Below are positions 26,131 through 44,136 of a stretch of 64,000 nt of DNA, in pieces. Origin of the DNA: Cloacibacillus evryensis DSM 19522 (GTDB lineage: Bacteria; Synergistota; Synergistia; Synergistales; Synergistaceae). A model generated the notes under the pieces. The model was not told where the DNA came from, searched no databases, and saw only the letters and a program-made list of their open reading frames with translations. Every line of letters starts with the position of its first letter. The stretch's first letter is position 1. A program made the position numbers and the translations under genes. The stretch spans positions 1,851,283-1,915,282 of the forward strand of contig NZ_KK073872.1 of NCBI RefSeq assembly GCF_000585335.1, in the 5' to 3' direction.

Positions 26131-26868
26131 TTATATCATATTCTGCATGTGGCAGCCGCCGAGCTGGTAGTACAGACACTTTCTGCCGCTGCAGGGCGTG
26201 CAGGCACGGGCGGTCGTCGTTGTCTCGTTATCCGCCGACCCAAGCGCTATAAGAGAGCACTGCGTCTTCCCAGGCCGAAAGAACGCGCCGCCGGGCACGC
26301 TCACGCCGATAAGTTTTTCCGTATCGCCCGTCTTTGATATATTTTCTAAAAGATCTTTCGACAGACTTCCCATCCCGGGGTAGAATTCACCGTTGATATA
26401 TAGATTATCACGGTGCGCGCATTCGTCTTTTAGCCAACGGATAAGCTGATCGTGCATCGCATGGAGCGCGATGGAACCTGCGATGTCCAACAGAAAGCCC
26501 GTTATTGTATTTTCTTTATCCGACGACAGCAGGCCCGCCTCTTTCTCAAGACCGGGGCCGATCGTCCATACCATCATTGCGGCCTTTGCAACAGAATCGT
26601 TCGTTTTCACGATGCCTGCGCCGAACTTTTCCTCGGCGTCCGCCGCCGGCATGAAGACGACGCGGGCCGCCGGGCGCAGAAGCTTTTCAGCGGCTTCATT
26701 CTCCCAGTAGTTTAAGAACTCGTCCAGCCCGATTTTTTCTTTGAGCCCTCTCCGCGTGTAAAATTTTTCAAGCGCGGAAAGGTCCGCTTTTAACGGAGGC
26801 CCTTCGGCGTTTAGTATTTTTTCAGGCGTTTCGTCCGCCGACGAATATAAGATGTTTATTCTTTTCAT
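26131..26868 (-). CDS. MetH-activation-domain-like protein linked to corrinoid methyltransferases
   Basis: A 245-residue protein resembling the SAM-binding activation domain of vitamin B12-dependent methionine synthase: the YPGMGSLSKDLLENI segment and FFRPGKTQCSLIALG match the domain's order, and it ends with a Cys cluster CTPCSGRKCLYYQLGGC that could bind metal. Such stand-alone forms accompany corrinoid demethylase operons and probably help reductive reactivation of cob(II)alamin. It follows the reductive activator gene by 26 bp. Start ATG 26868 has GGAGG 11 nt upstream. Exact role is inferred. Confidence 0.78.
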   Translation of the reverse strand: MKRINILYSSADETPEKILNAEGPPLKADLSALEKFYTRRGLKEKIGLDEFLNYWENEAAEKLLRPAARVVFMPAADAEEKFGAGIVKTNDSVAKAAMMVWTIGPGLEKEAGLLSSDKENTITGFLLDIAGSIALHAMHDQLIRWLKDECAHRDNLYINGEFYPGMGSLSKDLLENISKTGDTEKLIGVSVPGGAFFRPGKTQCSLIALGSADNETTTTARACTPCSGRKCLYYQLGGCHMQNMI

Positions 26869-26894
26869 TGCCCGGCGCGCCTCCCGTTCGCAAA

Positions 26895-28508
26895 TCAAAA
26901 GCCCATTGCGGCGACAAACCGCTCCTGAAAATCCGCCAGCGCAGAAAGTTCCACGTACTGCATCTTTTTAGCCGCCTCAAGCGTCCTTGCGTAAAAATCC
27001 GCGGACGCCAGCGCCATGCTTGCGCCCAGGCCGGACGTATTTTTCACGCTTCGTATCTTGTTTCTGTCAACGTTGGGCAAGAGCCCCACGGCGACGGCGC
27101 TTTCAATGTTTATGTTGTTTCCAAAAGCGCCTGCCAGGCAAACTTCCTCAAGCCGGGAGCTTGTGATCCCTTCCCGTTCAAGCATCGCCCCGATGCCGAC
27201 TTTTATCGCCCCTACCGCAAGCTGCACCTCGCGAATATCCTTTTGCGTCAAATAAACGGGGTTCCGGCCGTCTGTCAGCAGCAGCTGCGCCATCCCGCCC
27301 TCCGCGCGGCACATCCTCTTTCCGATCAGCGGAGCCGCCGCCTTATCCGGAGAGTTGAACCTCCCGCCGCGGCCAATAACGCCCTCGCGGAGCGCCAACG
27401 CCACCGCGTCGATGAGCCCCGAGCCGCACAGCCCTTTAGGGGCTGCGCCGCCGATGGTCCGGCAAATGATATCGCCGTCAAGGACACGGACAGACTCGAC
27501 AGCGCCGCCGCATGCGCGCATGCCGTATTTGATCCTGGCTCCTTCGAGCGCCGGTCCGGCCGCCGCGGCGCAGCAGTACATCCCTTTTGAATTTCCGATA
27601 ACGATCTCATTGTTTGTGCCGATATCAACGAGGAGGCGCATCGTATCTTCCGTATCCATATTTAACGCGGCCGCGCCCGCGACTATATCCGCGCCGACAT
27701 ACCCCGCGACATTCGGCAACATCTTTATCATGCCAGCTTTGTTTATTTTTATGCCGACGTCCGAGGCGGGAAAGGGCGGACGGACGAGGAACTCCGGCCT
27801 GTACGGGCTGTGCCCGATGCTTTTTGGCGAGACTCCGCAGAACAGATGTTCCATCACCGTATTGCCCGCTATCGTAATTTCCGTTATATCATCTATTTGA
27901 ATGCCGCTTCGGCGGGCCAAAAGCCCGATATTCCCGTTCATTTCTTTAACGAGCGTTTGCTGCGCGGCGCAAAGGCGCTCTTTCGATTCAGAGGAGAATG
28001 CGATCCTTGAAATGACGTCGTCACCGAAACGCACCTGCGGGTTGACGAAGGCGATCTTATTCATTTCTATGTGAGATTCGAGGTCGAAAAGATATAAAAC
28101 GACCGTAGTTGTGCCGATGTCGACGGAGACGCCGCAGCCATGGGAGCCGGGACGCCAGTCTTCTATCGGGCGGGAAAAACCGTCGAGTATTTTATTGCCC
28201 TCGCTCCCCGCCCTGTCTATGACGAACACAGTACCGTCCGCAGCGATCTGCGCGCAGCACGCAAGACGAACGCCGTTTTTCAGCCCGTCTTCACCGAGGA
28301 CGTCCTTTTCTCTCTGCGTCGGCGGCGACAGCGGGTCGAGCCCGCGCACCGTCTTCACTCTGCACTTTCCGCAGATCCCGGCGCCTCCGCAGTGCCGGCC
28401 GATCTCCGCGCCAGCCTCAGCCGCAGCGTCGGCAAGCGACTCCCCCGCCTTTACGTACGCGGTGATATTATCCGGCTGAAAGACTATTCTGTATTTTCTG
28501 TCGGGCAT
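26895..28508 (-). CDS. Corrinoid reductive activator (RACE/RamA-like, ASKHA domain with 2Fe-2S)
   Basis: A 537-residue protein. Residues ~1-95 are a ferredoxin-like 2Fe-2S domain (HCGGAGICGKCRV with a later LACC), and the rest is the ASKHA-fold ATPase region (GVSVDIGTTTVVLYLFDLES, LLVDIGTNNEIVIGN, LAGAFGNNI). Family members use ATP to reduce inactive Co(II) corrinoid proteins to Co(I). The partner is most likely the corrinoid protein at 31.8-32.5 kb. Start ATG 28508 has GGAGG 11 nt upstream; 36 extra in-frame bases upstream are probably untranslated. Confidence 0.9.
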   Translation of the reverse strand: MPDRKYRIVFQPDNITAYVKAGESLADAAAEAGAEIGRHCGGAGICGKCRVKTVRGLDPLSPPTQREKDVLGEDGLKNGVRLACCAQIAADGTVFVIDRAGSEGNKILDGFSRPIEDWRPGSHGCGVSVDIGTTTVVLYLFDLESHIEMNKIAFVNPQVRFGDDVISRIAFSSESKERLCAAQQTLVKEMNGNIGLLARRSGIQIDDITEITIAGNTVMEHLFCGVSPKSIGHSPYRPEFLVRPPFPASDVGIKINKAGMIKMLPNVAGYVGADIVAGAAALNMDTEDTMRLLVDIGTNNEIVIGNSKGMYCCAAAAGPALEGARIKYGMRACGGAVESVRVLDGDIICRTIGGAAPKGLCGSGLIDAVALALREGVIGRGGRFNSPDKAAAPLIGKRMCRAEGGMAQLLLTDGRNPVYLTQKDIREVQLAVGAIKVGIGAMLEREGITSSRLEEVCLAGAFGNNINIESAVAVGLLPNVDRNKIRSVKNTSGLGASMALASADFYARTLEAAKKMQYVELSALADFQERFVAAMGF

Positions 28509-28637
28509 TGAAGTCCGTACCTCCGAACGTTGAACTATCGGCAAATACTTTATTTTACATTTTCTGCGGCATGGTTTCTCGCGATGCGTAACAATGCCGG
28601 GAGCCCGGCTGTTTTCAAAACAGGCGAATAACTATGG

Positions 28638-29297
28638 CTAAAAAACCTTCTTAAGCGTTTTGCTGACGGCTATTTCGAAAACCTGATTGATGTGCTTACG
28701 CATCAAATCCTGGGCTTCCAAAACTTGTTTGCTCCGTATCAGCTTTACGATCTCACGGTGCTCGTTTACCGAAGCGGGCGTGAATTTGTGCGGCGTGCCC
28801 ATCCATGAGAGGCGCTGCAGTTTTTCTATGGTGTTCACGAGCTGTTCGAGCAATATTGGGTTTCCCGTGATCTGTGCGAGATACAGATGAAACTCTTCGT
28901 TTGATTCGGTTTGTTTTGAATGCTTCGCGGCTTCCGGAGACGTCTCCTGCCCTTCCGCCAAAAACTCAAGATGATCAAGCTGTTCTTTTTCGGCATATTG
29001 GGCGGCATAATAGATATTGGCGTTTTCCAGCACCGATCGAAACTGGAAAAGGTTGCGCATATCTTCCAGCGTGATTTCGCTTACCATATATCCTTTGTGC
29101 GGGAACACCTTAACGAGCCCGTCATGTTTAAGCAGAGAGAGCGCTCCCCTTACGCTTGTCGGGCTTGCGTCGTAGATTTCCGAAATCTGACGTTCCGTAA
29201 GGAATTCTCCCGGTTTCATGCGAAGCCCAATGATATCCTGCCTCAACGATTCATATATTTGCGTTACAAGGTCGCTCTTCTTCGTTCTGCCGCCCAT
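28638..29297 (-). CDS. GntR family regulator (FCD/FadR subfamily)
   Basis: A 219-residue regulator: N-terminal winged helix (IYESLRQDIIGLRMKPGEFLTERQISEIYDASPTSVRGALSLLKHDG, ~residues 14-60) and a helical FCD ligand domain with metal-type His/Asp residues. It sits between the aminotransferase and the corrinoid activator gene, inside the demethylation locus. A palindrome shared by the two nearby catabolic promoters, and a partial copy just ahead of this gene, make it the obvious candidate to bind them. Start ATG 29297 has GAGGTGG upstream. Confidence 0.9.
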   Translation of the reverse strand: MGGRTKKSDLVTQIYESLRQDIIGLRMKPGEFLTERQISEIYDASPTSVRGALSLLKHDGLVKVFPHKGYMVSEITLEDMRNLFQFRSVLENANIYYAAQYAEKEQLDHLEFLAEGQETSPEAAKHSKQTESNEEFHLYLAQITGNPILLEQLVNTIEKLQRLSWMGTPHKFTPASVNEHREIVKLIRSKQVLEAQDLMRKHINQVFEIAVSKTLKKVF

Positions 29298-29309
29298 GCT
29301 TTTCCACCT

Positions 29310-29325
29310 CAGTAAGTATTCAGAG
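29310..29325 (-). promoter_or_regulatory. Partial copy of the shared operator ahead of gntR
   Basis: The plus-strand sequence CAGTAAGTATTCAGAG keeps the first 11 bases of the full operator CAGTAAGTATTTACTG found at 39070-39085. It lies 12 bp before the gntR start codon and touches its ribosome site, which suits autoregulation. The second half-site is poor. Confidence 0.35.
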
Positions 29326-29464
29326 AGTATCCGGATTTATATTCTCACAAGAGGCGGGCAGGTGTCAAGCCGCCGTTCCTTCAACCTTGCCGCACTCCGC
29401 CCGCTAATCCGCCCGGACGCCGGCCGTATGAATACTCCGCCGCCTCGTTCTATTTGCGCCCGCA

Positions 29465-30643
29465 CTAACGCAGGCCGTCGACGGCCTCTTTTATCCTGCG
29501 CATACCTTCTTCGATATAATCATATTCCCGGCAGTAAGCGATGCGGATGTGCCCCGCGGCTCCAAACACCTCTCCCGGAACGACGGAGACGCCGGCGTTT
29601 TCCAAAAGCCACGAGCAGAACTTGAATCCGTCCATATTAAGCGAAGATATCCTGGGGAACGCATAGAATGCTCCGGCCGGCTTGATCGCCTCAAACCCCT
29701 CTATTCGCCCGATCCATTGCGCGACCATATCGCGGCGCCGCCCGTATTCGGCGATCATCTTTTTTACGTCGCCGTCGGCATGCGCGAATGCGGCCGCGAC
29801 TCCGGCCTGTGCAAAAGAATTGGCGCAGGTCGTAAGGTTCTGATGACATTTATTGAGGTATGGCGTCATTTCTTCCGGCGACACGGCCCAACCTATGCGC
29901 CATCCCGTCATCGACCATGTTTTTGAGGCGGCCGAGACCGTAACTGTACGTTCTTCCATTCCTTTAAAGCTGCCGATGCTGACATGCTCGCCCTCATAAA
30001 GGAACTTTTCGTAACATTCGTCGGAGATAACAAGGAGGTCTTTGGAGATTGCTAACGCCGCTATTTCTTCAAGGTTGCCGCGCGTCAGCACCGCTCCGCT
30101 TGGATTATTCGGGGTGTTGATCAATATGGCTTTTGTCCTGGGCGTTATCGCCTCTGCGATATCGTCCACGCTCAGCGCAAAACCTCTTTCCATTGAGGTC
30201 GGGACATTGACCATGACGGCTCCGGTCAAGGCGATCTCGTCGGCGTATGCGGAAAAATACGGGGACGGCACGATTATTTCGTCGCCCGGGTCAAGGATCG
30301 TCAGCAGCGAGGCGGTGATCGCCTCCATCGCGCCGTTGGTGATCACGACGCCGCGCTGCGCGTTGGCCTGCATGTTGTTTTCTCTGCGGTATTTTTCCGC
30401 CACGGCCTCGCGCAGCTCTTCGGTTCCCTGCATATTTGTGTAGTGGACGTCTCCGGAGTCAAGCGCGGATTTTACCGCCTCTTTTGCGCACGCCGGTGAA
30501 TCGAAATCCGGCCTGCCTATTTCCATATGAATTATGCTTCTGCCCTCTTTTTCAAGCTCATTCGCGCGGGAGAGTATTTCGCGGATCCCGCCGCTCATCT
30601 TTATCGAAGACATCCGTTTGTTCGGGAACTTAACGCTTGTCAT
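29465..30643 (-). CDS. PLP-dependent aminotransferase, class I/II
   Basis: A 392-residue fold-type I aminotransferase (AspC/AlaA-like). The PLP lysine is in VSAASKTWSMTGWRIGWAV (~K238); other landmarks are NTPNNPSGAVLTRGNL and the substrate carboxylate-binding Arg near the C-terminus (IRIAYCREY). It lies 97 bp downstream of the UroD-type methyltransferase gene at the end of the demethylation operon, so it probably processes the amino acid left after demethylation/dehydration. Start ATG 30643 has AAGGAG upstream. Substrate unknown. Confidence 0.9.
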   Translation of the reverse strand: MTSVKFPNKRMSSIKMSGGIREILSRANELEKEGRSIIHMEIGRPDFDSPACAKEAVKSALDSGDVHYTNMQGTEELREAVAEKYRRENNMQANAQRGVVITNGAMEAITASLLTILDPGDEIIVPSPYFSAYADEIALTGAVMVNVPTSMERGFALSVDDIAEAITPRTKAILINTPNNPSGAVLTRGNLEEIAALAISKDLLVISDECYEKFLYEGEHVSIGSFKGMEERTVTVSAASKTWSMTGWRIGWAVSPEEMTPYLNKCHQNLTTCANSFAQAGVAAAFAHADGDVKKMIAEYGRRRDMVAQWIGRIEGFEAIKPAGAFYAFPRISSLNMDGFKFCSWLLENAGVSVVPGEVFGAAGHIRIAYCREYDYIEEGMRRIKEAVDGLR

Positions 30644-30739
30644 CTCATATCTCCTTCTAACTTCGCATAAACTATCGCGTTTTGCGAAGCGAAAAAAGCT
30701 CTGCGCCAGGCGCGTCGGAAGCTCGGCGGCGCGCCTGTG

Positions 30740-31759
30740 CTACATGTTCTTGTTTGTATAAAATTCGTCTACAGCGTTAAAGAACGCGTCGATGTTGTCC
30801 CAGCTGCTCTGCGCCGGGATGTCGCATCCGGACGATATGACGAAGTTCGGGAACTGCCAGCACTCGTCGAGCACGCGCAGAGTGTCCTCGCGGATCGATT
30901 CCGGCGTGCCGTTGCGGAACTGCGAGGCGGGGTCTATGTTGCCCATCGCGATCACGTCGGGCGGAAGTAGCTCCATCATTTTTTTCATTGAGATGGAATT
31001 TCCGAAATGGTACGCGGAAGCGTTCAGCCGAAGCAGCGAATCCGTCATTTTCACCACGGAAGCCCCGCAGTTATGATAAATAACGGCAAAATCGTCGTCC
31101 TTGACGGCGTCTATGATCTCTTTGACATACGGCTCCGAGAATTTTTTTGCAAGGCCGGGAGAGAGTAGCCCCGTCAGCGGCTCCGCCATAACGATCCCGT
31201 TTGCGCCGGCGTCTTTGTATGCCTGTGAATACTTTATAAGGAACTGTACGGTTTTTTTCAGCACCGTGTGCATAATTTCAGGGTTCTCGATGCACATCAT
31301 CATGGCCGTCGTCACGTCCACAAGGCGCCCCGCAAGCGAGAAGGGGCCGATAATGCCGGCAAAGACGGGGCGGTCGGTTATCAGGCCGCATGCTTTGGAG
31401 ATGCCGTCTATATAGCACCCCGTGCGGAACGCGCCCACTTCGGGCACTTTTAAAGCGTCCGCGTCCTCCTGTGATTTTACCAACGCGCCGATAACGGTAG
31501 GGACTTCGTCGTCAAAAAAGCGCACGGTCGATCCAAACGCCTCCGCCTCGACGGAAAGATCCATCATGCTGACCGACGCGGAGGTGTCGAGCCTGTCCGC
31601 GATCATCTTCATGCCCTTTGCCTGCAGTTCGCTCCTGCCGATGAGTTCCGTCACGCTTATGCCCATCAACGACGTTGAGGGGAACGACAGCACCGGCATC
31701 GACTTTTTTCTCTTGACTCCTATTTGATCGTTTAACCATTCCTGTATAAGTTTCGACAT
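30740..31759 (-). CDS. UroD-family corrinoid methyltransferase (MtaA/MtbA-like)
   Basis: A 339-residue uroporphyrinogen-decarboxylase-fold protein of the methyltransferase branch: it has a probable zinc site (YHNCG, His and Cys at ~240, and SSGCDIP with a third Cys at ~312), as in MtaA/MtbA. It would take the methyl group from the corrinoid protein and pass it to an acceptor; in bacteria this is probably a folate or other thiol, not coenzyme M. Start ATG 31759 is 9 nt after GGGAGG; ATG 31768 abuts that site. It lies 67 bp after the corrinoid protein gene. Confidence 0.85.
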   Translation of the reverse strand: MSKLIQEWLNDQIGVKRKKSMPVLSFPSTSLMGISVTELIGRSELQAKGMKMIADRLDTSASVSMMDLSVEAEAFGSTVRFFDDEVPTVIGALVKSQEDADALKVPEVGAFRTGCYIDGISKACGLITDRPVFAGIIGPFSLAGRLVDVTTAMMMCIENPEIMHTVLKKTVQFLIKYSQAYKDAGANGIVMAEPLTGLLSPGLAKKFSEPYVKEIIDAVKDDDFAVIYHNCGASVVKMTDSLLRLNASAYHFGNSISMKKMMELLPPDVIAMGNIDPASQFRNGTPESIREDTLRVLDECWQFPNFVISSGCDIPAQSSWDNIDAFFNAVDEFYTNKNM

Positions 31760-31825
31760 TTTAGACATCCTCCCTGCATATATGATATAAAAATTTATCG
31801 TCGCGGCGCGGCCGCGCTTAATATT

Positions 31826-32458
31826 TTATTTTACGCCGAGCAGTTCTTTCGCGACGGAAACCGCGGAGGTCGCGTCGGAAGAATAATGCGCGCCTATCCT
31901 GGCGGCGAACGCCGGAGAGATCGGAGCGCCGCCGACCATTACCTGCACTTTGCCGTCAAGCCCCTCGCCTTTGATATCCTCTATGACCTCTCTCATTTTA
32001 TCCATCGTCGTCGTCAGCATGGCCGACATGGCGAGTATGTCGGGATTTTCCTCTTTTATCCTGGCGATGATTTCCTTTGAGCTCTTGTCGACGCCCATGT
32101 TCACCACCTGGAACCCTGCGCCCTCAAGCATCATCTGCACCAGTTTCAACCCTATATCGTGCAGGTCGCCTTCGACGGTCACGGCAAGTACCTTTCCACA
32201 GGAAACGATGCCGGCATCCTTAAGATATGGAAAAAGGTATTCGACGCCCGCCTGAAGAGTCTTAGCCGACATCAACACTTCGGGAACGAACATTTCTCCG
32301 TCCTTGAAGAGCACGCCGACTTCCGTCATTCCGGCGATCAGGCCCTGCTTTAAAATTTCCCCGGCCTGAATATTTTCATCGATTGCCTGCCTGCACAGCT
32401 CTTTCACTTCACCTGGCTCTCCGTCCATAACGGCGCCGGATATTTCTTCTAAAATCAT
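31826..32458 (-). CDS. Corrinoid (B12-binding) methyl carrier protein
   Basis: A 210-residue two-domain protein: a helical cap (residues ~1-85) and a cobalamin-binding Rossmann domain with the lower-ligand motif EGDLHDIG (~residues 104-111), SAML and GGAPIS signatures. It is of the MttC/MtbC type and would accept a methyl group from the MttB homologue encoded 79 bp upstream, then present it to the UroD-type methyltransferase. Start ATG 32458 has AAGGAG upstream. High confidence in family, moderate in partner. Confidence 0.93.
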   Translation of the reverse strand: MILEEISGAVMDGEPGEVKELCRQAIDENIQAGEILKQGLIAGMTEVGVLFKDGEMFVPEVLMSAKTLQAGVEYLFPYLKDAGIVSCGKVLAVTVEGDLHDIGLKLVQMMLEGAGFQVVNMGVDKSSKEIIARIKEENPDILAMSAMLTTTMDKMREVIEDIKGEGLDGKVQVMVGGAPISPAFAARIGAHYSSDATSAVSVAKELLGVK

Positions 32459-32537
32459 ATTTTCTATCTCCTTTCACATATATTTTTCGCGGCGGCGGAA
32501 ACAACAGGTATCCAAGGCCAAAATAATTTTACAGGCA

Positions 32538-34043
32538 TTATCTTTCGCTCCAGATTTTTCCGGCGTCAGGCGGCATGTCCGGGAATTCCTTCCTTATTGC
32601 CTCCTCGATGTCGGGGTCGATCGGGAGCGGTTTATGGTTTGCCAGGATATCCCTAGCTATTTCGTTCGCTTTTTTGAGATACGAGGGAGACCCTGCCTCC
32701 TGCCACGTCGAAAAAGTTTTTCTGTCCGAAAGTTTGGGATAAAAGAATTCGGAGCGCATATACTGCATGGTTATCGGATCTTCAAGGAAGACACCGCCAT
32801 GTCCCTGTTTTTTTATGGATTCAAAGCCCAGGGTCTCCTCGTTGACCTCGATCCCGCGAAGTACTCGTTTGGCCATTGCAGTATATTCATTGGCCATCAC
32901 GTAAGCTTCATAGGAGAGATTTAAGCCGCTTTCTATCAGCCCGAACGTGCCATGCGCAAAATTGGCTCCCGACATGGACTGAAACATATCCCCCACGGCG
33001 ATTTCCATTCCGCACTGCGCGTCGACGACCTTTGCATCGCTGTGCCCGCAGGTCGTATAGCTGGGGATATTATGCCAGTGCGCTATCTGGTTCGCCGCAC
33101 AGTTCTGTATCCATCCTTCGACGGAGGCAAATGTGAACTCCCCCGTCCTGTGGTCCATGCTGACGGGAACGGCCGAATAAAAACACGGATGGCCGGCCTT
33201 CGCGAGCTGCACCGTTATGATTGTCATCAAAGCTTCAACATTGCAGAGAACAAGCTGAGAAGCCAGCGTGCCTGGACAGGTCGTGCCAAGCGTCGGGGCG
33301 GACGGCGAGGCGACGGGGAAGCCGTATTTTACGGATTCAAGCAATGTCTCGGTCCATTTCCCATCCATGATCAGAGGGCTGATGACGCCGCATACAAGCG
33401 TAAAGAACGGCCTTTCACGGCTTGCGCCTTCCTGCCCCAATATCATGTTGCAGAGCTTATATAATTTGGAAACGCTGGACGGCCTATAGATGCCCACAGA
33501 CAGATGCTTTGACGAATTCTTCGCCATCGTGAAGGCCCTGACGATATCGGAATCTTCCCTCTTGACGTCGATTTCATGGGGATAACAGCAAACCTGGACG
33601 ATGTCGGCATTCTCAAGGGCGTCGCAAAGGCGGGTGCCCGCCGCCAGATCATACAGCGTCGACTCGCGCCTCTCGCCCGTTTCAAGATCGGTGACGGTGA
33701 CCGCCTCGCCGGCCGTGGCATTATAGACACGTGAACCTCCCTGAAGAATATTGTGCCTTGGGTCTCTGCCGTATTGAGTGAATTCCTTTGGGGCCGCGGC
33801 GATGCAATAATCTACGATCTCCTTGCCTATCTTGCATATTCCGGTATTCTCGTCTACTACCGCCCCGGCCTTGCGCCACAGCTCTCTTGCCGGCGCGGAT
33901 TTTATACAGACGCCCACTTCCTCAAATATTTTCAGGGACGTGTTATGTATTTCCTCAATTTGCCCCTCTGTGAGAGGACGGTAAATATTTCCCTCATAGA
34001 CAATTTTCTCGGCGCTTGCCCGCATTTTTGACCTTCGCATCAT
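32538..34043 (-). CDS. MttB-superfamily methyltransferase without pyrrolysine
   Basis: A 501-residue member of the trimethylamine methyltransferase family. The frame has no internal amber codon, so it is a non-pyrrolysine member like the glycine betaine (MtgB), proline betaine (MtpB) and carnitine (MtcB) demethylases. Recognisable parts are RPLTEGQIEEIHNTSLKIFEEVGV near the N-terminus and SGANFAHGTFGLIESGLNLSYEAYVMANE around residue 375. It probably demethylates a quaternary amine on to the corrinoid protein. Its operon mates (aconitase X, RidA, aminotransferase) suggest a hydroxylated amino-acid betaine. Start ATG 34043 has AAAGGA upstream. Confidence 0.9.
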   Translation of the reverse strand: MMRRSKMRASAEKIVYEGNIYRPLTEGQIEEIHNTSLKIFEEVGVCIKSAPARELWRKAGAVVDENTGICKIGKEIVDYCIAAAPKEFTQYGRDPRHNILQGGSRVYNATAGEAVTVTDLETGERRESTLYDLAAGTRLCDALENADIVQVCCYPHEIDVKREDSDIVRAFTMAKNSSKHLSVGIYRPSSVSKLYKLCNMILGQEGASRERPFFTLVCGVISPLIMDGKWTETLLESVKYGFPVASPSAPTLGTTCPGTLASQLVLCNVEALMTIITVQLAKAGHPCFYSAVPVSMDHRTGEFTFASVEGWIQNCAANQIAHWHNIPSYTTCGHSDAKVVDAQCGMEIAVGDMFQSMSGANFAHGTFGLIESGLNLSYEAYVMANEYTAMAKRVLRGIEVNEETLGFESIKKQGHGGVFLEDPITMQYMRSEFFYPKLSDRKTFSTWQEAGSPSYLKKANEIARDILANHKPLPIDPDIEEAIRKEFPDMPPDAGKIWSER

Positions 34044-34077
34044 ATATTGTCCTTTCTAAAGACAACTCGGCAAAATA

Positions 34078-34476
34078 CTAAACGTTTTTGTCTTCGTTTG
34101 ATCGATCCAGCGCGACCACGGCACAAAGTTCAAGTCTCAGGCCGAGATATATTTCCTTCGCAATAGTGGCGACCCTCGCCGGATAGCCGTTTGGAAAATA
34201 CTTGGCATACGTGCTGCTGAAACCGGGAAAATCGTCGTTTGACAAAAGAATGACCTGAGTAAAGAGTACATCGTCAAGACCAGCGCCCAGCTTTTCTACA
34301 ACTTTCTTAAGGTTGTCAAGCGCCCTGGCGGTTTCTTCTTCTATTGTTCCCCGCACCGGCTGATTATTTTCGTCAAGACTCATCTGCCCTGAAATAAAGG
34401 CAACCCCATTGGCATACGCGACGTCAGAATAGGTCTTCCCAGACCAGTCGGAAAGATTCAATACTTTTTTCATCAT
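34078..34476 (-). CDS. RidA family (imine/enamine deaminase) protein
   Basis: A 132-residue RidA/YjgF homologue. The conserved Arg that binds the carboxylate of imino acids is in NGYPARVATIAKE (~R107), and VAFISGQMSLDENN and the C-terminal LELCAVVALD are family features. RidA hydrolyses 2-aminoacrylate and related enamines/imines, which fits a locus with a dehydratase (aconitase X) acting on amino acids. Start ATG 34476 has GGAGG 10 nt upstream. It lies between the aconitase X small subunit and mttB. Confidence 0.92.
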   Translation of the reverse strand: MMKKVLNLSDWSGKTYSDVAYANGVAFISGQMSLDENNQPVRGTIEEETARALDNLKKVVEKLGAGLDDVLFTQVILLSNDDFPGFSSTYAKYFPNGYPARVATIAKEIYLGLRLELCAVVALDRSNEDKNV

Positions 34477-34517
34477 TAGAGATATACCTCCATTGTATTA
34501 TTTGTAAATACCTTCAT

Positions 34518-34940
34518 CTAATTTTTTCTCCATACTTCGACAGTTCCCTTTTCACCGTCGATTACAAGCCGGTCGCCGTCATGTATGACGGAAAAAGGAT
34601 CCGGCTGCTTGACACAGACCGCGGGCGTATTGGTAGTTACAAGCGCCACTCCTACCCTTGTGTCAACGTTTTTAAGCACCCACCCTTTGGGCGAATGACC
34701 GTTGGCCTTCAATGCGGTGAAATGGCAAGACCATCCGACTGAGCCTTTCCCTCCCGGCACCACAAGGATCATGCCCGCCACGGATTCGCCCCTGTGTATG
34801 TTGTCTTTTTCGATAATGAGCCCTTCGCTTGTAATGCCGGACCATCCGGCGATACTGTCCGGCAGGACCATTGCGCGGCCTTCGACCTTGCCGTCAATCA
34901 GAGCTCTTCCCGTAAGAGAAGCTATCAGTTTTTCGTCCAT
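34518..34940 (-). CDS. Aconitase X small (swivel, DUF126) subunit
   Basis: A 140-residue swivelling-domain subunit of aconitase X. The motif GGKGSVGWSCHF at ~residues 60-71 includes the Ser that is catalytic in characterised members. Known enzymes dehydrate cis-3-hydroxy-L-proline (bacteria) or mevalonate 5-phosphate (archaea). Start ATG 34940 has GGAGG 7 nt upstream and lies 4 bp after the large subunit stop codon. Together with the large subunit it should form the heterodimer. Confidence 0.88.
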   Translation of the reverse strand: MDEKLIASLTGRALIDGKVEGRAMVLPDSIAGWSGITSEGLIIEKDNIHRGESVAGMILVVPGGKGSVGWSCHFTALKANGHSPKGWVLKNVDTRVGVALVTTNTPAVCVKQPDPFSVIHDGDRLVIDGEKGTVEVWRKN

Positions 34941-34944
34941 GATC

Positions 34945-36252
34945 TTACCTCCAAAAACCGTCCAGCGCCGCCGCAAGGCACTTCATCGGCTCGCCGAAGT
35001 ATGTGTTGATCGATTTGTCGTAACAGGGCGGCATACAATATGAAAGTTTGATCGAATCAAAGACCACGCCCAATCGCTCTCCGATAAGTTTCTCCTTTGT
35101 CTCCGGATACTCAAACACATAGCAGGGACACGAACCGGCAAGCAGATTTCCGCCCGCCGCCTCTATAAGTTTGGTAAATCCGCACCTGTCGGCCTGCGCT
35201 TTGACGCTGTAGGTCGTCCATATATGAAGATGCACCCACGGCGCGACTTTCTTTCCCTTAAGCGCCATGGCGGCGTCTTTTATCTCGTAGATAGAATAAT
35301 GCGGGCAGCCCAAATTGACAGAACCTACTTTGCCGCTCGCCGGCGAACAGAATTTTGCACGGGCTTCGTCAATATCACGCTGAACGATATGGAAAGACGG
35401 CGACGCGTCGGCGGCGGCCATACTGCCGAAAGCGGCCTCGAGAGTGGGGGCTTCCGGCGTGATCCCGAGGACGTGGCACATGTCTATATCGCTGACCACC
35501 GCCAGAGGGGCGGAAAAATGTTTGAATTTATCAAGATCCAGATCATCAAAAGAACCGATCAGCACAGGGACGGACGACTTGGGCGCGATGCTGCCGACCA
35601 CATAGCCGAGCAGTTCCCATTCAGTATGTGTATTGATAGGACAATCAACATAGACGCGGCAGGTGCCGATGCGATTTTCAGCGACATGCCTGCCGTATTT
35701 CGGCGTCCGCCCGCAAATCGCCGCCCAGAAACTGGCCTCGATCCCCTCGGGATTGCCGCAGGCGCCAAACAGGGAATTGCATAATAAAACGTTTGACGAT
35801 TCCGTCGTTATAAAGTGCTGCCCCTTAAGAGGTATCCAGCCTGTCAAATACGGAGCGCAGGTCGACGTCCTCACGGCGCCGGCATCCGCGAGGTAACCGA
35901 CATAATCTTCGTTCATTTTATAATCTTTTTCGTTGATCCAAAGCTGCCGATAACTATCGGCATCCAACGGTTCCACTCAGGTCTGCGTCATACATTCGGG
36001 AGAGAAAGAATCGAGTGGGATAGTTTCTTTACACGCCATATTCATCGCGCAGAAGTTGTCCTTCACGTCATCGTTGCCGGCCGCTTTTAAATATTCATGC
36101 GCGCCTCCGAATATAGTAGCCATAGAGACTTTGCACAGTTCCTCCACTCCAAGAACTTTCGCGTAGCGGCAAATATTTTCTATCGCTTTTTGCTTCATTG
36201 GGCCATATTTGCCAATCAACATATCGTTTTCATAATCGCTTAATTTAAGCAT
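34945..36252 (-). CDS. Aconitase X large (catalytic) subunit with in-frame UGA; candidate selenoprotein
   Basis: The reading frame from ATG 36252 to 34945 gives 436 codons, normal for this subunit, but codon 92 (35979-35977) is TGA. Both sides belong to one family: before it, KLSDYENDMLIGKYGPMKQ and IPLDSFSPECM; after it, VRTSTCAPYLTG, ESSNVLLCNSLFGACGNPEG, CPINTHTEW and AGSCPCYVFEYP. No ribosome site precedes the GTG right after the TGA, so separate initiation of the second part is unlikely. A hairpin 15 nt downstream fits a bacterial SECIS element, so UGA may encode selenocysteine. The alternatives are a nonsense mutation or a sequencing error. First gene of the demethylation operon. Confidence 0.7.
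35946..35961 (-). promoter_or_regulatory. Candidate bacterial SECIS hairpin
   Basis: On the coding (minus) strand GCCGAT-AGTT-ATCGGC forms a perfect 6-bp stem with a 4-nt loop; a T-A pair extends it to 7 bp, and a G-C/G-T pair follows beyond one A-G mismatch. The stem begins 15 nt and the loop 21 nt after the in-frame TGA (35979-35977). The loop has G at its second position. These values match published bacterial SECIS search rules (loop 16-37 nt from UGA, G among the first two loop bases). Confidence 0.5.
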
Positions 36253-36443: not shown

Positions 36444-37010
36444 TTAAAACGTTCTCTTTACGGTGCAGCCGTCCGCTGGCAACGGAACGTAGTAGATTTT
36501 TTTGCCCTCTTCCGGCTCTCCGAAGAAGGCCACGTGATAGGGGCGGTAGACGCTCTTTATCTCCGCGGGCTCAAGTGAAAAATTCCCTCCCACGCGCCGG
36601 CGCAGTATCCTGCGCGCGAGCGCGTTGCCGCGCGTTACAAGTTCCGCGTCCGAAAAATCAGAGCGCTGCAAAGATTCTTCCGCTATCTCCGTTTCCGCGG
36701 TCTCGACGCCTCTGCCGTCGTAATATGAAACGCCGCATGTCGAACCGTTCGCGATCATCATTATTTTGCTCTTACGCGGCTTCGCCTCTTTCTTGAACAG
36801 CTTTCCGAGAAGCGGCGGCTTTGCCGTTATTTCAAAGGTGATGAGCCTGTTTTCTATGTAGATCGTCTTCATAACGATTTCCTGATCTTCGCGTTGTCCG
36901 CCGCTTGTCAGGCGCGTTATGAAGCGCGCGATGAGGCCGTTTCTTTTGCGCGCCTCGCGCTTCGCCTCTTCCATGCTCAGCTTTATAGGAAAAGAGGTAA
37001 TGACCGCCAT
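36444..37010 (-). CDS. Hypothetical protein downstream of symporter
   Basis: A 188-residue soluble protein without a recognised domain. It begins MAVITSFPIKLSMEEAKREARKR and is rich in Lys/Arg in its middle (GKLFKKEAKPRKSK); there is no signal peptide or membrane helix. It is the last gene of the symporter operon, 18 bp after the 80-residue membrane protein. The position suggests an accessory role for the transporter or a substrate-specific function, but nothing in the sequence shows it. Confidence 0.6.
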   Translation of the reverse strand: MAVITSFPIKLSMEEAKREARKRNGLIARFITRLTSGGQREDQEIVMKTIYIENRLITFEITAKPPLLGKLFKKEAKPRKSKIMMIANGSTCGVSYYDGRGVETAETEIAEESLQRSDFSDAELVTRGNALARRILRRRVGGNFSLEPAEIKSVYRPYHVAFFGEPEEGKKIYYVPLPADGCTVKRTF

Positions 37011-37028
37011 CGTTCCGCCCTTTCTGCC

Positions 37029-37271
37029 CTACTTGCGCGTGCCGCGCGAGAACGAGATCACCTGGAATATGTACTTCAGGAATACCCACGTGGTGACGAG
37101 CATCGCGCTGTACGGCAGCAACCTGCCCAGCACGATATCGACGTCGTGGATCATGCTCCATCCGATGAGTACCGCCTCCACAATGTACGCGAGGCAGAAC
37201 ATCCCGTCCATACCGAACCATGATATTCTAAGGTCGTCGTTTATTTCGTTTTTCATTTCGTTATTTGCCAT
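37029..37271 (-). CDS. Small membrane protein downstream of symporter
   Basis: An 80-residue protein with two hydrophobic segments (~residues 18-42 and ~48-70: GMFCLAYIVEAVLIGWSMI and LLPYSAMLVTTWVFLKYIF) after a charged, Asn/Glu-rich N-terminus. It follows the symporter gene by 15 bp on the same strand, a common arrangement for small transporter subunits. No family recognised. Start ATG 37271 has GGGAGG upstream. Confidence 0.7.
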   Translation of the reverse strand: MANNEMKNEINDDLRISWFGMDGMFCLAYIVEAVLIGWSMIHDVDIVLGRLLPYSAMLVTTWVFLKYIFQVISFSRGTRK

Positions 37272-39332: not shown

Positions 39333-40142
39333 TTAAAACACCGCGTAGTCTACGTCCTTCGGGTCTCCGATGAACATGTAGCCGGGAGCGTGGGTGATCG
39401 CGAAGGGCGGTTTGCTCTTCATGAGCACCGCCTGCGGCGTCACTCCGCAGGCCCAGAAGACGGGCGTTTCGCCCTCGCGGATCTCCACCGCGTCTCCGAA
39501 ATCAGGCTTGCCCACATCCTTGATGCCGATAGCCGCCGGGTCGCCTATGTGGACGGGCGCGCCGTGGACGGCGGGGAACCTGCCAGTCGAGAGCACGGCC
39601 TTCGGCACCTGCGCGTGCTTGACGGGGCGCATGCTGACGACCATCGGGCCGCTGAGCCGTCCGGCGGGCTGGTTCTGGATGTTCGTTATGTACATCGGCA
39701 CGTTGCAGTTCATATCGATGTGGCGGATGGGGATGCCGGCCTCGAGCAGCGCGCCCTCAAAGCTGAATGAGCAGCCGAGCAGGAAGGCGACGAGGTCCTC
39801 TTTCCAGTATTTTTTAACGTCGGCCGGCTCGTCGACAAGCTCGCCATTTTCCCAGACGCGGTACTTCGGGATGTCGGTGCGCACGTCGGAGCCGGGGGCG
39901 ATGAGCTTCGCCTCCCACTGGCCCGGCTCGGTGATGTCGAGGATCGGGCAGGGCTTCGGATTGCGCTGGGCGAAGACGAGGAAATCATAAGCCCATTCCT
40001 TGGGCAGGACGATCATGTTCGCCTGCACGTGGCAGTGGCAGAGTCCCGAAGTCGGATAGACCCATTCCTCTTCGCGGATCAGCCGGCGCATCTCTTTCGG
40101 GTGCGTGGAATAAAAGGGCGTTACATCAAATGGCAGCGTCAT
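39333..40142 (-). CDS. DUF1445/YcsI family protein (putative hydro-lyase, D-glutamate cyclase-like)
   Basis: A 269-residue member of the YcsI family; the segments YVEF-like [34 protein letters not shown] and [32 protein letters not shown] are typical. Family members are annotated as putative hydro-lyases, and a mitochondrial relative is D-glutamate cyclase, which forms 5-oxo-D-proline. This fits its position as the last gene of a 5-oxoprolinase operon; its start overlaps the pxpA stop by 4 bp. Confidence 0.88.
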
Positions 40143-40912
40143 CCCAGTACGACCTCCTTCAAATTGGTAACTTTAACACCGGCGGCCTCGAGCGCCGCGC
40201 GGACGGCTTTCGCCATTTCGACGGCTTCGGGCGTGTCGCCGTGCATACAGATCGACTGCGGGCGGAAGCTGACGACCGTGCCGTCCACCGCTTCGACGGT
40301 CCCTTCCGTGACCATGCGCACGACGCGCTTCGCGGCGGCGTCGACGTCATGGATGATCGCGCCCGGCTGCGAGCGCGGCACGAGCGAACCGTCGGGCATG
40401 TAGCCGCGGTCTGCGAAGGCCTCCGCCGCGAAGGGCACGCCGAGTTCTTTGGCGGCTTTTTCAAATTCCGAGTTCGCGAGCCCCATGAGGATGATATCTT
40501 CGCCGGCGTCTTTGACGGCCTGCGCGATCGCCTTCGCGAGCGCTGGGTCTTTCGCGGCCTGATTGTACATCGCGCCGTGCGGCTTCACATGCTGCAGTTT
40601 GAGGCCGTTGGCTTCACAGAAGGCTTTGAGCGCGCCGACCTGATAGAGGCAGTCGGCGTATTCTTCGTCAGGCGTACACTTCATGTTCCGGCGCCCGAAG
40701 CCGACGAGGTCGGGATATCCGGGGTGCGCGCCGGCCGCCACTCCCTTTTCGGCGCAGGTCTTGAGCGTCTTTTTCATCACCAGCGGGTCGCCGGCGTGAA
40801 AGCCGCAGGCGACGTTCGCCGAGGTCACGGCGCACATTACCGCCGCGTCGTCGCCCATTTTGTAGGCGCCGAAGCTCTCTCCGATATCGCTGTTAAGGTC
40901 TACTTTGTACAT
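40139..40912 (-). CDS. pxpA: 5-oxoprolinase subunit PxpA
   Basis: A 257-residue LamB/YcsF family protein, the PxpA subunit of prokaryotic ATP-dependent 5-oxoprolinase, which opens 5-oxoproline (pyroglutamate) to glutamate with PxpB and PxpC. Family motifs are [18 protein letters not shown] at the N-terminus, [11 protein letters not shown] and [11 protein letters not shown]. Start ATG 40912 has GGAGTGA upstream, 17 bp after pxpC. Confidence 0.95.
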
Positions 40913-40929
40913 GGCAGGTCACTCCTTTT

Positions 40930-41991
40930 CTATATCTCTTCACAGGTTATTTCGTATGTCTTTCCGTTTAGCGTGATCTTGAAGCGCCCAGACATGGACG
41001 GCTGCACCGTCTGAGGGCTGCGTGAGACATACGAAAGGCGCAGTTCTCCGGCACGTTTTACGGCGTCGGCGATTTTTTGCTGCTCCGCCACGCCTTCAGC
41101 CACCGAGGCCTCGCGGAAGGTTACCTTCATACCCGGCATCTTCTGCACGAGCGCCTCAATCGAAAGCGGCGTGAGGACGCCTATCTTCGTGTAGCCTCCC
41201 GTCGTCTGGCGGTCGGCAAGCATGATTATCGGCATTCCGTGGCCTGGTATCTGCACCGCGCCAAGCGGTATGCCGTCGGAGACTATGTCCGCGCCCTTTT
41301 CAGTGTGTTCGATCTTGGGTCCCTCAAGGCGGCAGCCCATTCTGTCGGATTCAGCCGTGATCAGGTATTCCGATTCAAAAAGCAGCTTCCGGCCCTCTTC
41401 CGTAAAAGCGTCCCGCTGCAATCCCGTGATCACCGCCAGCGGCGCCTCGGCCGCGGCGGCGGGGGTCAATCCGGCGGACAGACGGAAGCCGCCGAGCCGC
41501 TTCCAGAGCGGCGCGGGCTCCCCCGTCTTTATGACGTCGCCGCTTTTAAGGGCGCGCCCCTCCACCCCGCCGATCTTCGCACGCATGTAGGTGGTGCGGC
41601 TGTTCATAACTACCGGGACATCCACGCCGCCCGCAAAGCATAGATTGCCGCGGCAGCCGGCGCCCTTCGGCCCGGTAAACGAAACGACGTCGCCGTCGTT
41701 AAGCACGACGGCCTGCCACGATCCCACCGCCCTGCCGTTGACCGAGAAGCCGAGGTCGGCTCCGGCAAAGACCGCCGCGCCGCCGCCGCTTACCTCGATC
41801 TCCGGGCCGAGCAGCGTCACTTCGAGCGCCGCCGCTCCCTCGGGGTTACCCAGCATCGCGTTGCCGATCCGGAGCGCTGGAAGGTCCATCGCCCCCGCGA
41901 CGGGGACGCCGCTGGACTGATATCCCCAGCGTCCGAGGTCCTGCACGGAGGTCAGCATCCCGGCCTTTTTTATTGTCAGTTCCATAGTCAT
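40930..41991 (-). CDS. pxpC: 5-oxoprolinase subunit PxpC (KipA-type, biotin-dependent carboxyltransferase family)
   Basis: A 353-residue protein. The typical start SVQDLGRWGYQSSGVPVAGAMD and the later MLADRQTTGGYTKIG are family marks of PxpC/KipA. It joins PxpB to form the part of 5-oxoprolinase that uses ATP/phosphorylated intermediate. ATG 41991 overlaps the pxpB stop as ATGA, with GGAGG upstream; a second ATG six bases on is equally possible. Confidence 0.94.
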   Translation of the reverse strand: MTMELTIKKAGMLTSVQDLGRWGYQSSGVPVAGAMDLPALRIGNAMLGNPEGAAALEVTLLGPEIEVSGGGAAVFAGADLGFSVNGRAVGSWQAVVLNDGDVVSFTGPKGAGCRGNLCFAGGVDVPVVMNSRTTYMRAKIGGVEGRALKSGDVIKTGEPAPLWKRLGGFRLSAGLTPAAAAEAPLAVITGLQRDAFTEEGRKLLFESEYLITAESDRMGCRLEGPKIEHTEKGADIVSDGIPLGAVQIPGHGMPIIMLADRQTTGGYTKIGVLTPLSIEALVQKMPGMKVTFREASVAEGVAEQQKIADAVKRAGELRLSYVSRSPQTVQPSMSGRFKITLNGKTYEITCEEI

Positions 41992-42731
41992 TTCGCCTCC
42001 GTTATCACGGGCTTGTAGGTACCCGCGGCCACTTCGGCCTCGATTTTTTTGTATTCCTCTTCCGTGACGGGAACGAAGCGCACCTCATAGCCGGCTTCGA
42101 TGAGCGTCGGGCGCGAGGCCTCCGGCGTGAAGAGGCGCAGCGGCGTGCGTCCGATGAGCTGCCAGCCGCCCGGGCTGTCTATCGGATAGATGCCCGTCTG
42201 TTTTCCCGCGATGCCGACGCTGCCGCCTTTGATGACGGTGCGCGGATTGGTGAGCCGCGGCGTCGCGATCGTTTCATCCATGCCTCCGAGGTAGGCGAAA
42301 CCGGGCATGAATCCGATCATATAGCAGTGACACGGCTTTGCGCTGTGCCGTTTGATCACTTCTTCCTCTGTGATCCCCGCATTTTCGGCCACGTTCGCGA
42401 TATCCGGGCCGTATTCGCCGCCGTAGCACACGGGTATGGATATCTCGGTATGAACCGCCCCCGCCTCTTCCCCGCCGTATACTGGCGCGGCCTTCGCCTC
42501 GTTTATAACCTCTTCCGCGCTTACCGCCACGGGATCAAAATAGACTGCCAGCGACCGGTAGGTCGGAAGGCACTCAACGATAGGGATATTTTTCTGATTC
42601 AGAAGATGTTTCTTTAGATTCATGACTGCGTCATTCGCGCCGCGGTCTATCTCGTCCGCGAACTCGATAACGACGCACGATTCGCCCGCATTGAGATATT
42701 TTGGTTCGTCCACATATATTGCCACCGACAT
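41988..42731 (-). CDS. pxpB: 5-oxoprolinase subunit PxpB (KipI-type)
   Basis: A 247-residue protein of the KipI/PxpB family with VCYGGEYGPDIANVAE, GFMPGFAYLGGMD, GSVGIAGKQTGIYP and SPGGWQLIGRTPL. It works with PxpC and PxpA. The start is uncertain: ATG 42731 lies very near AAAGGGG, and an in-frame GTG at 42725 has better spacing (8 nt). First gene after the NRAMP terminator. Confidence 0.94.
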   Translation of the reverse strand: MSVAIYVDEPKYLNAGESCVVIEFADEIDRGANDAVMNLKKHLLNQKNIPIVECLPTYRSLAVYFDPVAVSAEEVINEAKAAPVYGGEEAGAVHTEISIPVCYGGEYGPDIANVAENAGITEEEVIKRHSAKPCHCYMIGFMPGFAYLGGMDETIATPRLTNPRTVIKGGSVGIAGKQTGIYPIDSPGGWQLIGRTPLRLFTPEASRPTLIEAGYEVRFVPVTEEEYKKIEAEVAAGTYKPVITEAK

Positions 42732-42745
42732 CACCCCTTTACGTA

Positions 42746-42771
42746 AAAGAGGAGCGCTATGGCTCCTCTTT
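42746..42771 (-). terminator. Terminator between NRAMP-like gene and pxpB
   Basis: AAAGAGGAGC pairs perfectly with GCTCCTCTTT around a 6-nt loop, and a T-run follows on the minus strand. It may be leaky, letting some transcripts reach the pxp genes. Confidence 0.75.
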
Positions 42772-42798
42772 AATTTTACATCCTAACCCGGCTTTCAG

Positions 42799-43995
42799 CT
42801 ATGAGAAGAGCTTCAGTATTCCGGTGAAGGACTTCGCGCCCATCCAAGCCGTAAAGGCGACCATGATCCAGCCGAGGACCGTAAGCACCATCGGGTGGCG
42901 GTAGCCTTCGCCGATGATCTTTTTGTTATAGGCGGCAAGCAGCACCACGCCAAGCGACACCGGAAGTATCAACCCATTGACGGAGCCGGCAAAGATAAGC
43001 AGTTTGACGGGGTTTCCCATCGTGGCGAATATCGCCGTCGACACGCAGATGAAGCCCATTATCCAGTAACGGTTGTAAGCTTCGACCTGCTTGAAAAGAG
43101 TGCGCAGGAAAGATATCGAGGTGTACGACGCGCCGACCACCGACGTTACCGCCGCGCACCAGAGGATGACGCCGAATATACGGTATCCAAGCTGCCCCGC
43201 GCCGATGAGGAATGCTGACGCGGGCGGGTTTTTGGGGTCCAGCGCCACGCCGGTAGCGACCACGCCCAGGATGGCGAGGAAGAGCAGGTAGCGCATAATG
43301 CCCGTGATCCCGATCGCGGTGACGGAACCGTGCGTGATCTTATCGATGTTGCTCACGCCCGTTATGTTCGCGTCGATGATGCGGTGCGCGCCGGCGAAGG
43401 TGATGTAGCCGCCGACCGTGCCGCCGACCAGCGTGAGGATCGTCAGCCAGTCTATCGTTGAGGGAAGGACCGTCTCTTTAAGCGCCAGGCCGACGGGCGG
43501 GGCCGTCTTGACGACCATGAAGGCGACCATCGCCAGCATGATTATGCCGAGCACCTTCGTAAACATGTCCATCGCCTTGCCAGCCTCTTTGTTGACAAAA
43601 AGACCGATCGCCACGAGCGCGCTGACGATCGCGCCGGGCACGAAAGGTACGCCGCAGATCACGTTGAGTCCCATCGCCGCGCCGCCGACGTTGCCGATGT
43701 TAAATACAAGTCCGCCGATGGCTACCAATATGGCGAGAAAGTAGCCAAGTCCCGGGAAGACTTCGTTCGCCACGTCCTGAGCGCGTTTTCCCGATACGCC
43801 GAGGATGCGCCAGATGTTCATCTGCACGACTACGTCGATGAGAATAGATACGACGATCGCGAAAGCGAAAGCCGCCTTCAATTTGTCAGTGAAAACGGCC
43901 GTCTGTGTCAAGAACCCCGGTCCGATAGCCGAAGTCGCCATCAAAAATGCCGCGCCGATAAGTACGCTTGCTACAGATTCCTTTTTTTCCGCCAT
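42799..43995 (-). CDS. NRAMP-family transporter (YcsG-like)
   Basis: A 398-residue membrane protein with about 11 helices. The N-terminus SAIGPGFLTQTAVF is the NRAMP-type helix 1, but the canonical metal motif DPGN is replaced (IGPGF), so it may not carry divalent metals. In Bacillus subtilis a homologue (YcsG) lies within the ycsF-ycsI-kip operon, the same company as here, so it may import 5-oxoproline or a related acid. Start ATG 43995 has AGGAGG 9 nt upstream; a longer frame to 44100 is not supported. Confidence 0.85.
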   Translation of the reverse strand: MAEKKESVASVLIGAAFLMATSAIGPGFLTQTAVFTDKLKAAFAFAIVVSILIDVVVQMNIWRILGVSGKRAQDVANEVFPGLGYFLAILVAIGGLVFNIGNVGGAAMGLNVICGVPFVPGAIVSALVAIGLFVNKEAGKAMDMFTKVLGIIMLAMVAFMVVKTAPPVGLALKETVLPSTIDWLTILTLVGGTVGGYITFAGAHRIIDANITGVSNIDKITHGSVTAIGITGIMRYLLFLAILGVVATGVALDPKNPPASAFLIGAGQLGYRIFGVILWCAAVTSVVGASYTSISFLRTLFKQVEAYNRYWIMGFICVSTAIFATMGNPVKLLIFAGSVNGLILPVSLGVVLLAAYNKKIIGEGYRHPMVLTVLGWIMVAFTAWMGAKSFTGILKLFS

Positions 43996-44136
43996 TTTTG
44001 TTACCTCCTGTGAGATTTTGATAAAACCCTTCATTAATATACACGCAAAAAAGTTGCTATAAATATTTGGACTAATGAAAAAATTAACGAGGCCATTCAA
44101 CCGCTTTTTTCGCCGCCATCCGCTTTGTTTTATGCG

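What the first reader, a model, noticed from the sequence alone, without database searches (positions are those of the whole stretch)
34945..36252. Aconitase X large subunit with an in-frame UGA and a SECIS-like hairpin: candidate new selenoprotein
The frame is open for the full family length except for TGA at codon 92. Family sequence is continuous on both sides. The TGA is followed at 15 nt by a perfect hairpin (GCCGAT-AGTT-ATCGGC, coding strand) whose loop lies 21 nt from the UGA with G as second base, as bacterial SECIS rules require. No ribosome site supports re-initiation at the GTG directly after. Selenocysteine in aconitase X has not been described to my knowledge. The residue lies close to the SPECM segment, near other Cys residues likely to hold the iron-sulfur cluster.
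Basis: partly seen in the sequence, partly recalled or inferred. Interest (0 to 1): 0.88.

Follow-up and report, generated by a model that had tools for sequence, protein, structure and literature searches.

The report
Likely selenium-containing aconitase X enzyme
A gut-type anaerobic bacterium carries an aconitase-X dehydratase gene whose one internal UGA sits exactly where relatives have an active-site cysteine, so it probably encodes selenocysteine; this would be a new selenium enzyme, but it is known from one genome only and is unproven.

Summary
The aconitase X (AcnX) large-subunit frame at 36252-34945(-) is intact over 435 codons except TGA at codon 92 (35979-35977). The complete genome has tRNA-Sec, SelA, SelB and SelD. 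At least eight other genes (SelD, seven GrdB) carry UGA with a SECIS hairpin. In relatives, column 92 is Cys (48 distinct) or Asp (21); none has a stop. By alignment it equals Asn233 of Agrobacterium AcnX and probably Asn79 of Thermococcus AcnX, an active-site position contacting the Glu that holds the Fe-bound water. All cluster and catalytic residues after the UGA are intact, as is the downstream operon. The hairpin (7 bp, loop AGUU, 21 nt after UGA) is stronger than those of the eight controls and absent from 65 Cys/Asp homologues. It arises in 0.15% of synonymous recodings, but about 2% of ordinary codon positions match it. Caveats: no second UGA homologue was found, the loop lies 3-4 nt further from UGA and lacks the GG of the host's proven elements, and the protein is on a long branch. 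A recent Cys-to-stop mutation (TGY to TGA) or a base error is the main rival. I put selenocysteine at about 0.72.

The parts
34945..36252 (-). Aconitase X large (catalytic) subunit gene, 435 codons, read through UGA at codon 92; ATG start with GGGGTGA upstream
   Evidence: AlphaFold model pLDDT 94, best PDB matches are AcnX structures 7d2r/7cnq/7cnr
35977..35979 (-). In-frame UGA, codon 92, proposed selenocysteine codon; aligned to Cys (48) or Asp (21) in relatives and to Asn233 of A. tumefaciens AcnX
35932..35976 (-). Proposed SECIS: irregular stem beginning right after UGA, -15.9 kcal/mol
35945..35962 (-). Apical 7-bp hairpin UGCCGAU-AGUU-AUCGGCA, loop 21 nt after UGA, -8.9 kcal/mol; loop codon AGT is rare in this genome (4% of Ser)
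34518..34940 (-). Aconitase X small (swivel) subunit, intact, with GWSC motif that I read as the catalytic Ser; its ribosome site GGAGG lies in the last codons of the large subunit
   Evidence: Ser assignment by inspection
34078..34476 (-). RidA / L-PSP family protein (imine deaminase type)
32538..34043 (-). MttB-superfamily methyltransferase without UAG (non-pyrrolysine type)
31826..32458 (-). Methyltransferase corrinoid protein
30740..31768 (-). URO-D/MtbA-like corrinoid methyltransferase
29465..30643 (-). PLP aminotransferase (class I/II)
28638..29297 (-). GntR/FCD regulator
26895..28544 (-). RACo-type corrinoid activation protein

Best explanation
The gene encodes a selenocysteine form of the aconitase X large subunit. 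UGA at codon 92 is decoded by Sec-tRNA-Sec and SelB, directed by the stem-loop just downstream. Sec92 sits in the active site, at the position of Asn233 in A. tumefaciens AcnX (probably Asn79 in T. kodakarensis AcnX), next to the Glu (E151 here) that holds the Fe-bound water of the iron-sulfur cluster. It takes the place of the Cys or Asp found in relatives. Shown here: the frame, the Sec machinery, the Sec/Cys column, the hairpin and intact catalytic residues. Inferred: that the UGA is read as Sec; that Sec tunes or ligates the catalytic iron or acts as acid/base or hydrogen-bond partner in a dehydration; and that the substrate is a hydroxylated, probably N-methylated amino-acid-like compound fed through the MttB/corrinoid operon.
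For: (1) Single complete 3.49-Mb contig with tRNA-Sec (76 bits, over cut-off), SelB (386 bits), SelA beside it, SelD (317 bits) itself with one TGA. (2) Positive controls in the same genome: SelD and seven GrdB genes carry UGA plus SECIS-like hairpins. (3) Column 92 is Cys in 48 and Asp in 21 distinct relatives of its clade; the Cys relatives use TGC 22 and TGT 22 times. (4) Hairpin of -8.9 kcal/mol against -5.6 to -7.5 in the controls, absent in 65 homologues, 0.15% of synonymous recodings, with the loop codon AGT at 4% Ser usage. (5) After the UGA, C132, E151, S152, C316, C375 and K402 are all kept and align with AtAcnX Cys273, Glu292, Ser293, Cys449 (of the S449C mutant), Cys508 and Lys530. 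The high-confidence model matches AcnX crystal structures. (6) Across a long branch (1.36 changes/site) there is no other stop or frameshift, and the drop in identity after the UGA lies within the range of homologues (rank 42 of 50). (7) The downstream genes, starting with the small subunit, are intact.
Against: No UGA homologue among the 80 best relatives in about 85,000 species genomes, 188 genomes of the phylum or 728 genomes of three other orders and one class. The host's proven SECIS loops are GG-containing (GGN in seven of eight) and start 17-18 nt after UGA; here AGUU starts at 21 nt. Hairpins this strong occur at 1.9% of codon positions. TGC/TGT to TGA is one base change, and 41 codons of the gene are one step from TGA, 21 of them Cys. 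Conserved columns after the UGA are kept at 0.89, just below the lowest homologue (0.90), though the seven differences include several conservative ones and none is a cluster ligand or one of the catalytic residues named above.
Confidence: 0.72

Rival explanations
1. Recent nonsense mutation: a Cys-type AcnX gene lost function (or is losing it) by TGY to TGA; the hairpin is coincidence. Ribosomes stop after 91 residues.
For: Cys codons of relatives are one substitution from TGA; UGA is unique to this genome; hairpins as strong occur at about 2% of codon positions; the protein is on a long branch.
Against: It requires a hit on the one active-site column where relatives have Cys or Asp, together with a hairpin of SECIS-like geometry that no homologue has, in a genome rich in working UGA-Sec genes. 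No second lesion exists anywhere in the gene, catalytic residues are intact and the downstream operon is intact.
Confidence: 0.2
2. Assembly or base-calling error: the real codon is TGC or TGT (Cys).
For: A single base separates TGA from TGC/TGT; no reads or second isolate could be checked.
Against: Substitution errors in a closed single-contig genome are rare (general knowledge); the UGA-specific hairpin and its rare loop codon would be unexplained.
Confidence: 0.06
3. Two separate products: a 91-residue fragment and a 343-residue protein started at the GTG right after the UGA or at a later start.
For: GTG directly follows the TGA.
Against: No Shine-Dalgarno sequence before the GTG; the family model runs continuously through the UGA; no relative is split there.
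Confidence: 0.02

Closest known systems
[quoted passage not shown] A. tumefaciens AcnX, PDB 7cnp/7cnq/7d2r; PMC8184944)
   Same: Same fold (Foldseek 1e-31); E151, S152, C132, C375, K402 equal Glu292, Ser293, Cys273, Cys508, Lys530.
   Different: Separate large and small subunits; Sec/Cys/Asp at the Asn233 position; the third cluster Cys is C316, as in the archaeal type. NCBIfam LhpI equivalog cut-off not reached (142 of 700 bits).
Phosphomevalonate dehydratase (AcnX type II; T. kodakarensis 7cnr/7cns, A. pernix; PMC8184944, PMC10040528)
   Same: Two-subunit layout and the same three cluster cysteine sites (Cys110/283/342 type), so a [4Fe-4S] cluster is likely.
   Different: Asn79, which contacts the substrate phosphate, is by inference replaced by Sec/Cys/Asp; the operon is methyltransferase/corrinoid, not isoprenoid.
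Uncharacterised AcnX clade of Clostridia, Synergistota and Desulfobacterota (e.g. L070, L072, L118)
   Same: 42-45% identity over the full length, motif Q[ST][CD]; some lie near MttB or RidA genes.
   Different: Cys or Asp codon in place of UGA and no comparable hairpin.
Known UGA-decoded selenoproteins of the same genome (GrdB, SelD)
   Same: Internal UGA followed at once by a stem-loop with G in the loop.
   Different: Their loops contain GG at +17/18; here AGUU at +21. Their chemistry differs: a dehydratase does no net redox reaction.

Membership tests
Bacterial selenoprotein gene | Host encodes tRNA-Sec, SelA, SelB, SelD | tested here: met
Bacterial selenoprotein gene | In-frame UGA with family sequence continuing on both sides | tested here: met
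Bacterial selenoprotein gene | Homologues with Cys at the UGA column | tested here: met
   48 distinct Cys, 21 Asp
Bacterial selenoprotein gene | Stem-loop immediately downstream with a small G-bearing apical loop (feature as stated in PMC1088965) | tested here: met
   loop and spacing differ from the host's own elements; Rfam SECIS models do not match it, but they also miss three of five control loci
Bacterial selenoprotein gene | UGA conserved in a second species (usual support, not a requirement) | tested here: not met
   PMC12013277 lists new selenoproteins without TGA homologues
Bacterial selenoprotein gene | Selenium in the protein | not testable with these tools
   needs 75Se labelling or mass spectrometry
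Aconitase X | PF04412 match with cluster cysteines and catalytic Glu/Lys, and a swivel subunit PF01989 beside it | tested here: met
cis-3-hydroxyproline dehydratase (type I) | NCBIfam equivalog cut-off and fused swivel domain | tested here: not met
   142 bits against cut-off 700; separate small subunit

The most novel reading that the evidence does not exclude
First selenocysteine-dependent member of the aconitase superfamily: Sec at the active-site position next to the catalytic iron of a dehydratase, used for non-redox chemistry, possibly as a selenolate ligand or acid/base at a [4Fe-4S] cluster, in a methyltransferase/corrinoid operon.
Probability: 0.6. Interest if true: 0.75.

Novelty: new variant of a known kind. 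Interest (0 to 1): 0.63.

Why it matters
Most known selenoproteins do redox chemistry. A Sec residue in the active site of an iron-sulfur dehydratase would open the question of what selenium does there, and the Sec/Cys/Asp exchange at one column makes it testable by point mutants. Such genes are cut in two by standard annotation, so the enzyme would be missed. It also points to an uncharacterised AcnX clade with Cys or Asp where the characterised enzymes have Asn.

Tried and rejected
Rfam RF00031 in the genome gave nothing, and nothing in any control genome either, so it says nothing about bacterial SECIS; Rfam SECIS models on the hairpin gave no match, but they detect only two of five control loci. 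A contig-end fragment in another Synergistota genome (65% over 37 residues) first looked like a closer relative; its sequence is identical to the start of the Cys-type L028 protein, so it is not. Overall folding energy was tried as a test and dropped as unspecific. The idea that the region after the UGA evolves under relaxed constraint was tested and not supported. The idea that Sec replaces a cluster ligand was rejected: the ligands align to C132, C316 and C375. Re-initiation at GTG was rejected for lack of a ribosome site. Other candidate UGA genes near the GrdB loci were scanned; only GrdB and SelD were recognised.

Full report
What is there. The minus-strand frame 36252-34945 encodes an aconitase X large subunit of 435 codons with one internal stop, TGA at codon 92 (35979-35977). 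Pfam AcnX matches through the TGA (residues 2-412, 7.9e-88). The swivel small subunit follows at once (34940-34518), with its ribosome site GGAGG inside the last codons of the large subunit. RidA, an MttB-type methyltransferase, a corrinoid protein, an MtbA-like methyltransferase, a PLP aminotransferase, a GntR regulator and a RACo-type activator come next, all open.

The organism. The window lies in a single-contig genome of 3,488,464 bp. A congeneric genome in the set is 3,585,187 bp long, exactly the length given for Cloacibacillus porcorum CL-84 in PMC12013277, so the genus is very probably Cloacibacillus (inference). That paper reports 18 known and no new selenoproteins for C. porcorum. 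In that genome the only match to our query is an ordinary AcnX paralogue (1.1e-36, no stop).

Sec machinery and controls. tRNA-Sec (76.2 bits, cut-off 47), SelB (386 bits, cut-off 242), SelA directly beside SelB and SelD (317 bits, cut-off 125) are present. SelD carries one in-frame TGA. Of eight GrdB matches, seven have UGA in the motif STUG[ST] or ATUGT, each followed by a hairpin with GG in the loop 17-18 nt after the UGA. UGA is therefore very probably read as Sec in this host.

The column. In A1 (18 sequences) Cys87 and Gln90 are invariant and position 92 is Cys or Asp in every relative. Among relatives from about 85,000 species genomes and the genome searches, distinct sequences have Cys 48, Asp 21, and Leu, His, Thr, Val or Asn in more distant clades; none has a stop there. 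Cys codons are TGC 22 and TGT 22. An alignment with A. tumefaciens AcnX places residue 92 on Asn233, ungapped to the nearly invariant Asp97/Asp238. Cys132, Glu151, Ser152, Cys316, Cys375 and Lys402 fall on Cys273, Glu292, Ser293, Cys449 (of the S449C mutant used), Cys508 and Lys530. PMC8184944 reports that Asn233 hydrogen-bonds Glu292, that Glu292 and Lys530 hold the Fe-bound water, and that in the archaeal enzyme Asn79 contacts the Glu and the substrate phosphate. The step from Asn233 to Asn79 follows that paper; I did not align Tk residue 79 directly. Three cysteines of the archaeal pattern suggest a [4Fe-4S] cluster, as shown for A. pernix (PMC10040528).

The hairpin. UGCCGAU-AGUU-AUCGGCA starts 14 nt after the UGA; the loop starts at 21 nt and G is its second base. 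Stability is -8.9 kcal/mol against -5.6 to -7.5 for the eight controls by the same rule. It tops a longer irregular stem of -15.9 kcal/mol that begins right after the UGA. None of 65 Cys/Asp homologues has a hairpin as stable, and one reaches the weakest control. It arises in 29 of 20,000 synonymous recodings; the loop codon AGT is 4% of Ser codons and TTG 8% of Leu. Limits: 1.9% of CDS codon positions have one as good and 8.5% reach the weakest control; the total folding energy is not special; the loop differs from the host's GG loops and is 3-4 nt further away.

Function or decay. The tree gives the protein a long branch (1.36) with weak placement beside Cys-type sequences. There is no second lesion. 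The pre/post-UGA identity difference is within the range of homologues (rank 42 of 50). Conserved columns are kept at 0.94 before and 0.89 after the UGA, the latter just below the lowest homologue (0.90), without loss of the catalytic residues. Together with the intact operon this argues against old decay. It cannot exclude a very recent mutation or a base error, because no close relative was available.

Mechanism. Most likely the UGA is read as Sec by SelB with the downstream stem-loop. Sec92 would sit beside the catalytic Glu and the open iron of the cluster, where a selenolate could ligate iron, act as acid/base or position water (inference). The operon and the RidA and MttB neighbours suggest catabolism of an N-methylated, hydroxylated amino-acid-like compound, with AcnX producing an enamine/imine that RidA hydrolyses (inference).

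Novelty. Searches of the paper library for selenoprotein together with aconitase X or DUF521, and a look through a 2022 review and the 2025 deep-Sep paper, found no Sec aconitase X. Closed-access papers and preprints were not searchable. An enoyl-CoA hydratase-family selenoprotein is listed in the 2022 review, so a Sec hydratase/dehydratase has a weak precedent.

Verdict. New variant of a known kind: probability about 0.72 for Sec, 0.20 recent nonsense mutation, 0.06 base error, 0.02 split products.

Noticed in passing
G000:C1:1728349-1729275 (L141) and L145-L151: SelD and seven GrdB genes of the same genome carry in-frame UGA with a SECIS-like hairpin; standard ORF calls would truncate them. 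An eighth GrdB-like gene (L152) has Cys in place of Sec.
   Followed up: yes
L021-L036, L061-L121: A whole AcnX clade in Clostridia, Synergistota and Desulfobacterota has Cys or Asp at the active-site position where characterised AcnX enzymes have Asn, and sometimes lies near MttB, corrinoid or RidA genes (L056, L070, L054). No function is known to me; probably a separate dehydratase family.
   Followed up: partly
window 26131-36252: Operon of AcnX, RidA, non-pyrrolysine MttB, corrinoid protein, MtbA-like methyltransferase, PLP aminotransferase, GntR and RACo-type activator: looks like a catabolic route for a betaine-like hydroxy amino acid.
   Followed up: partly
window 39333-44100: D-glutamate cyclase-family protein beside CT_C_D and CT_A_B carboxyltransferase-domain proteins (5-oxoprolinase-like) and an Nramp-like transporter; apparently a separate pyroglutamate-type cluster.
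   Followed up: no
window 36444-37271: Two small ORFs (188 and 80 aa) between the symporter and AcnX without Pfam match.
   Followed up: no
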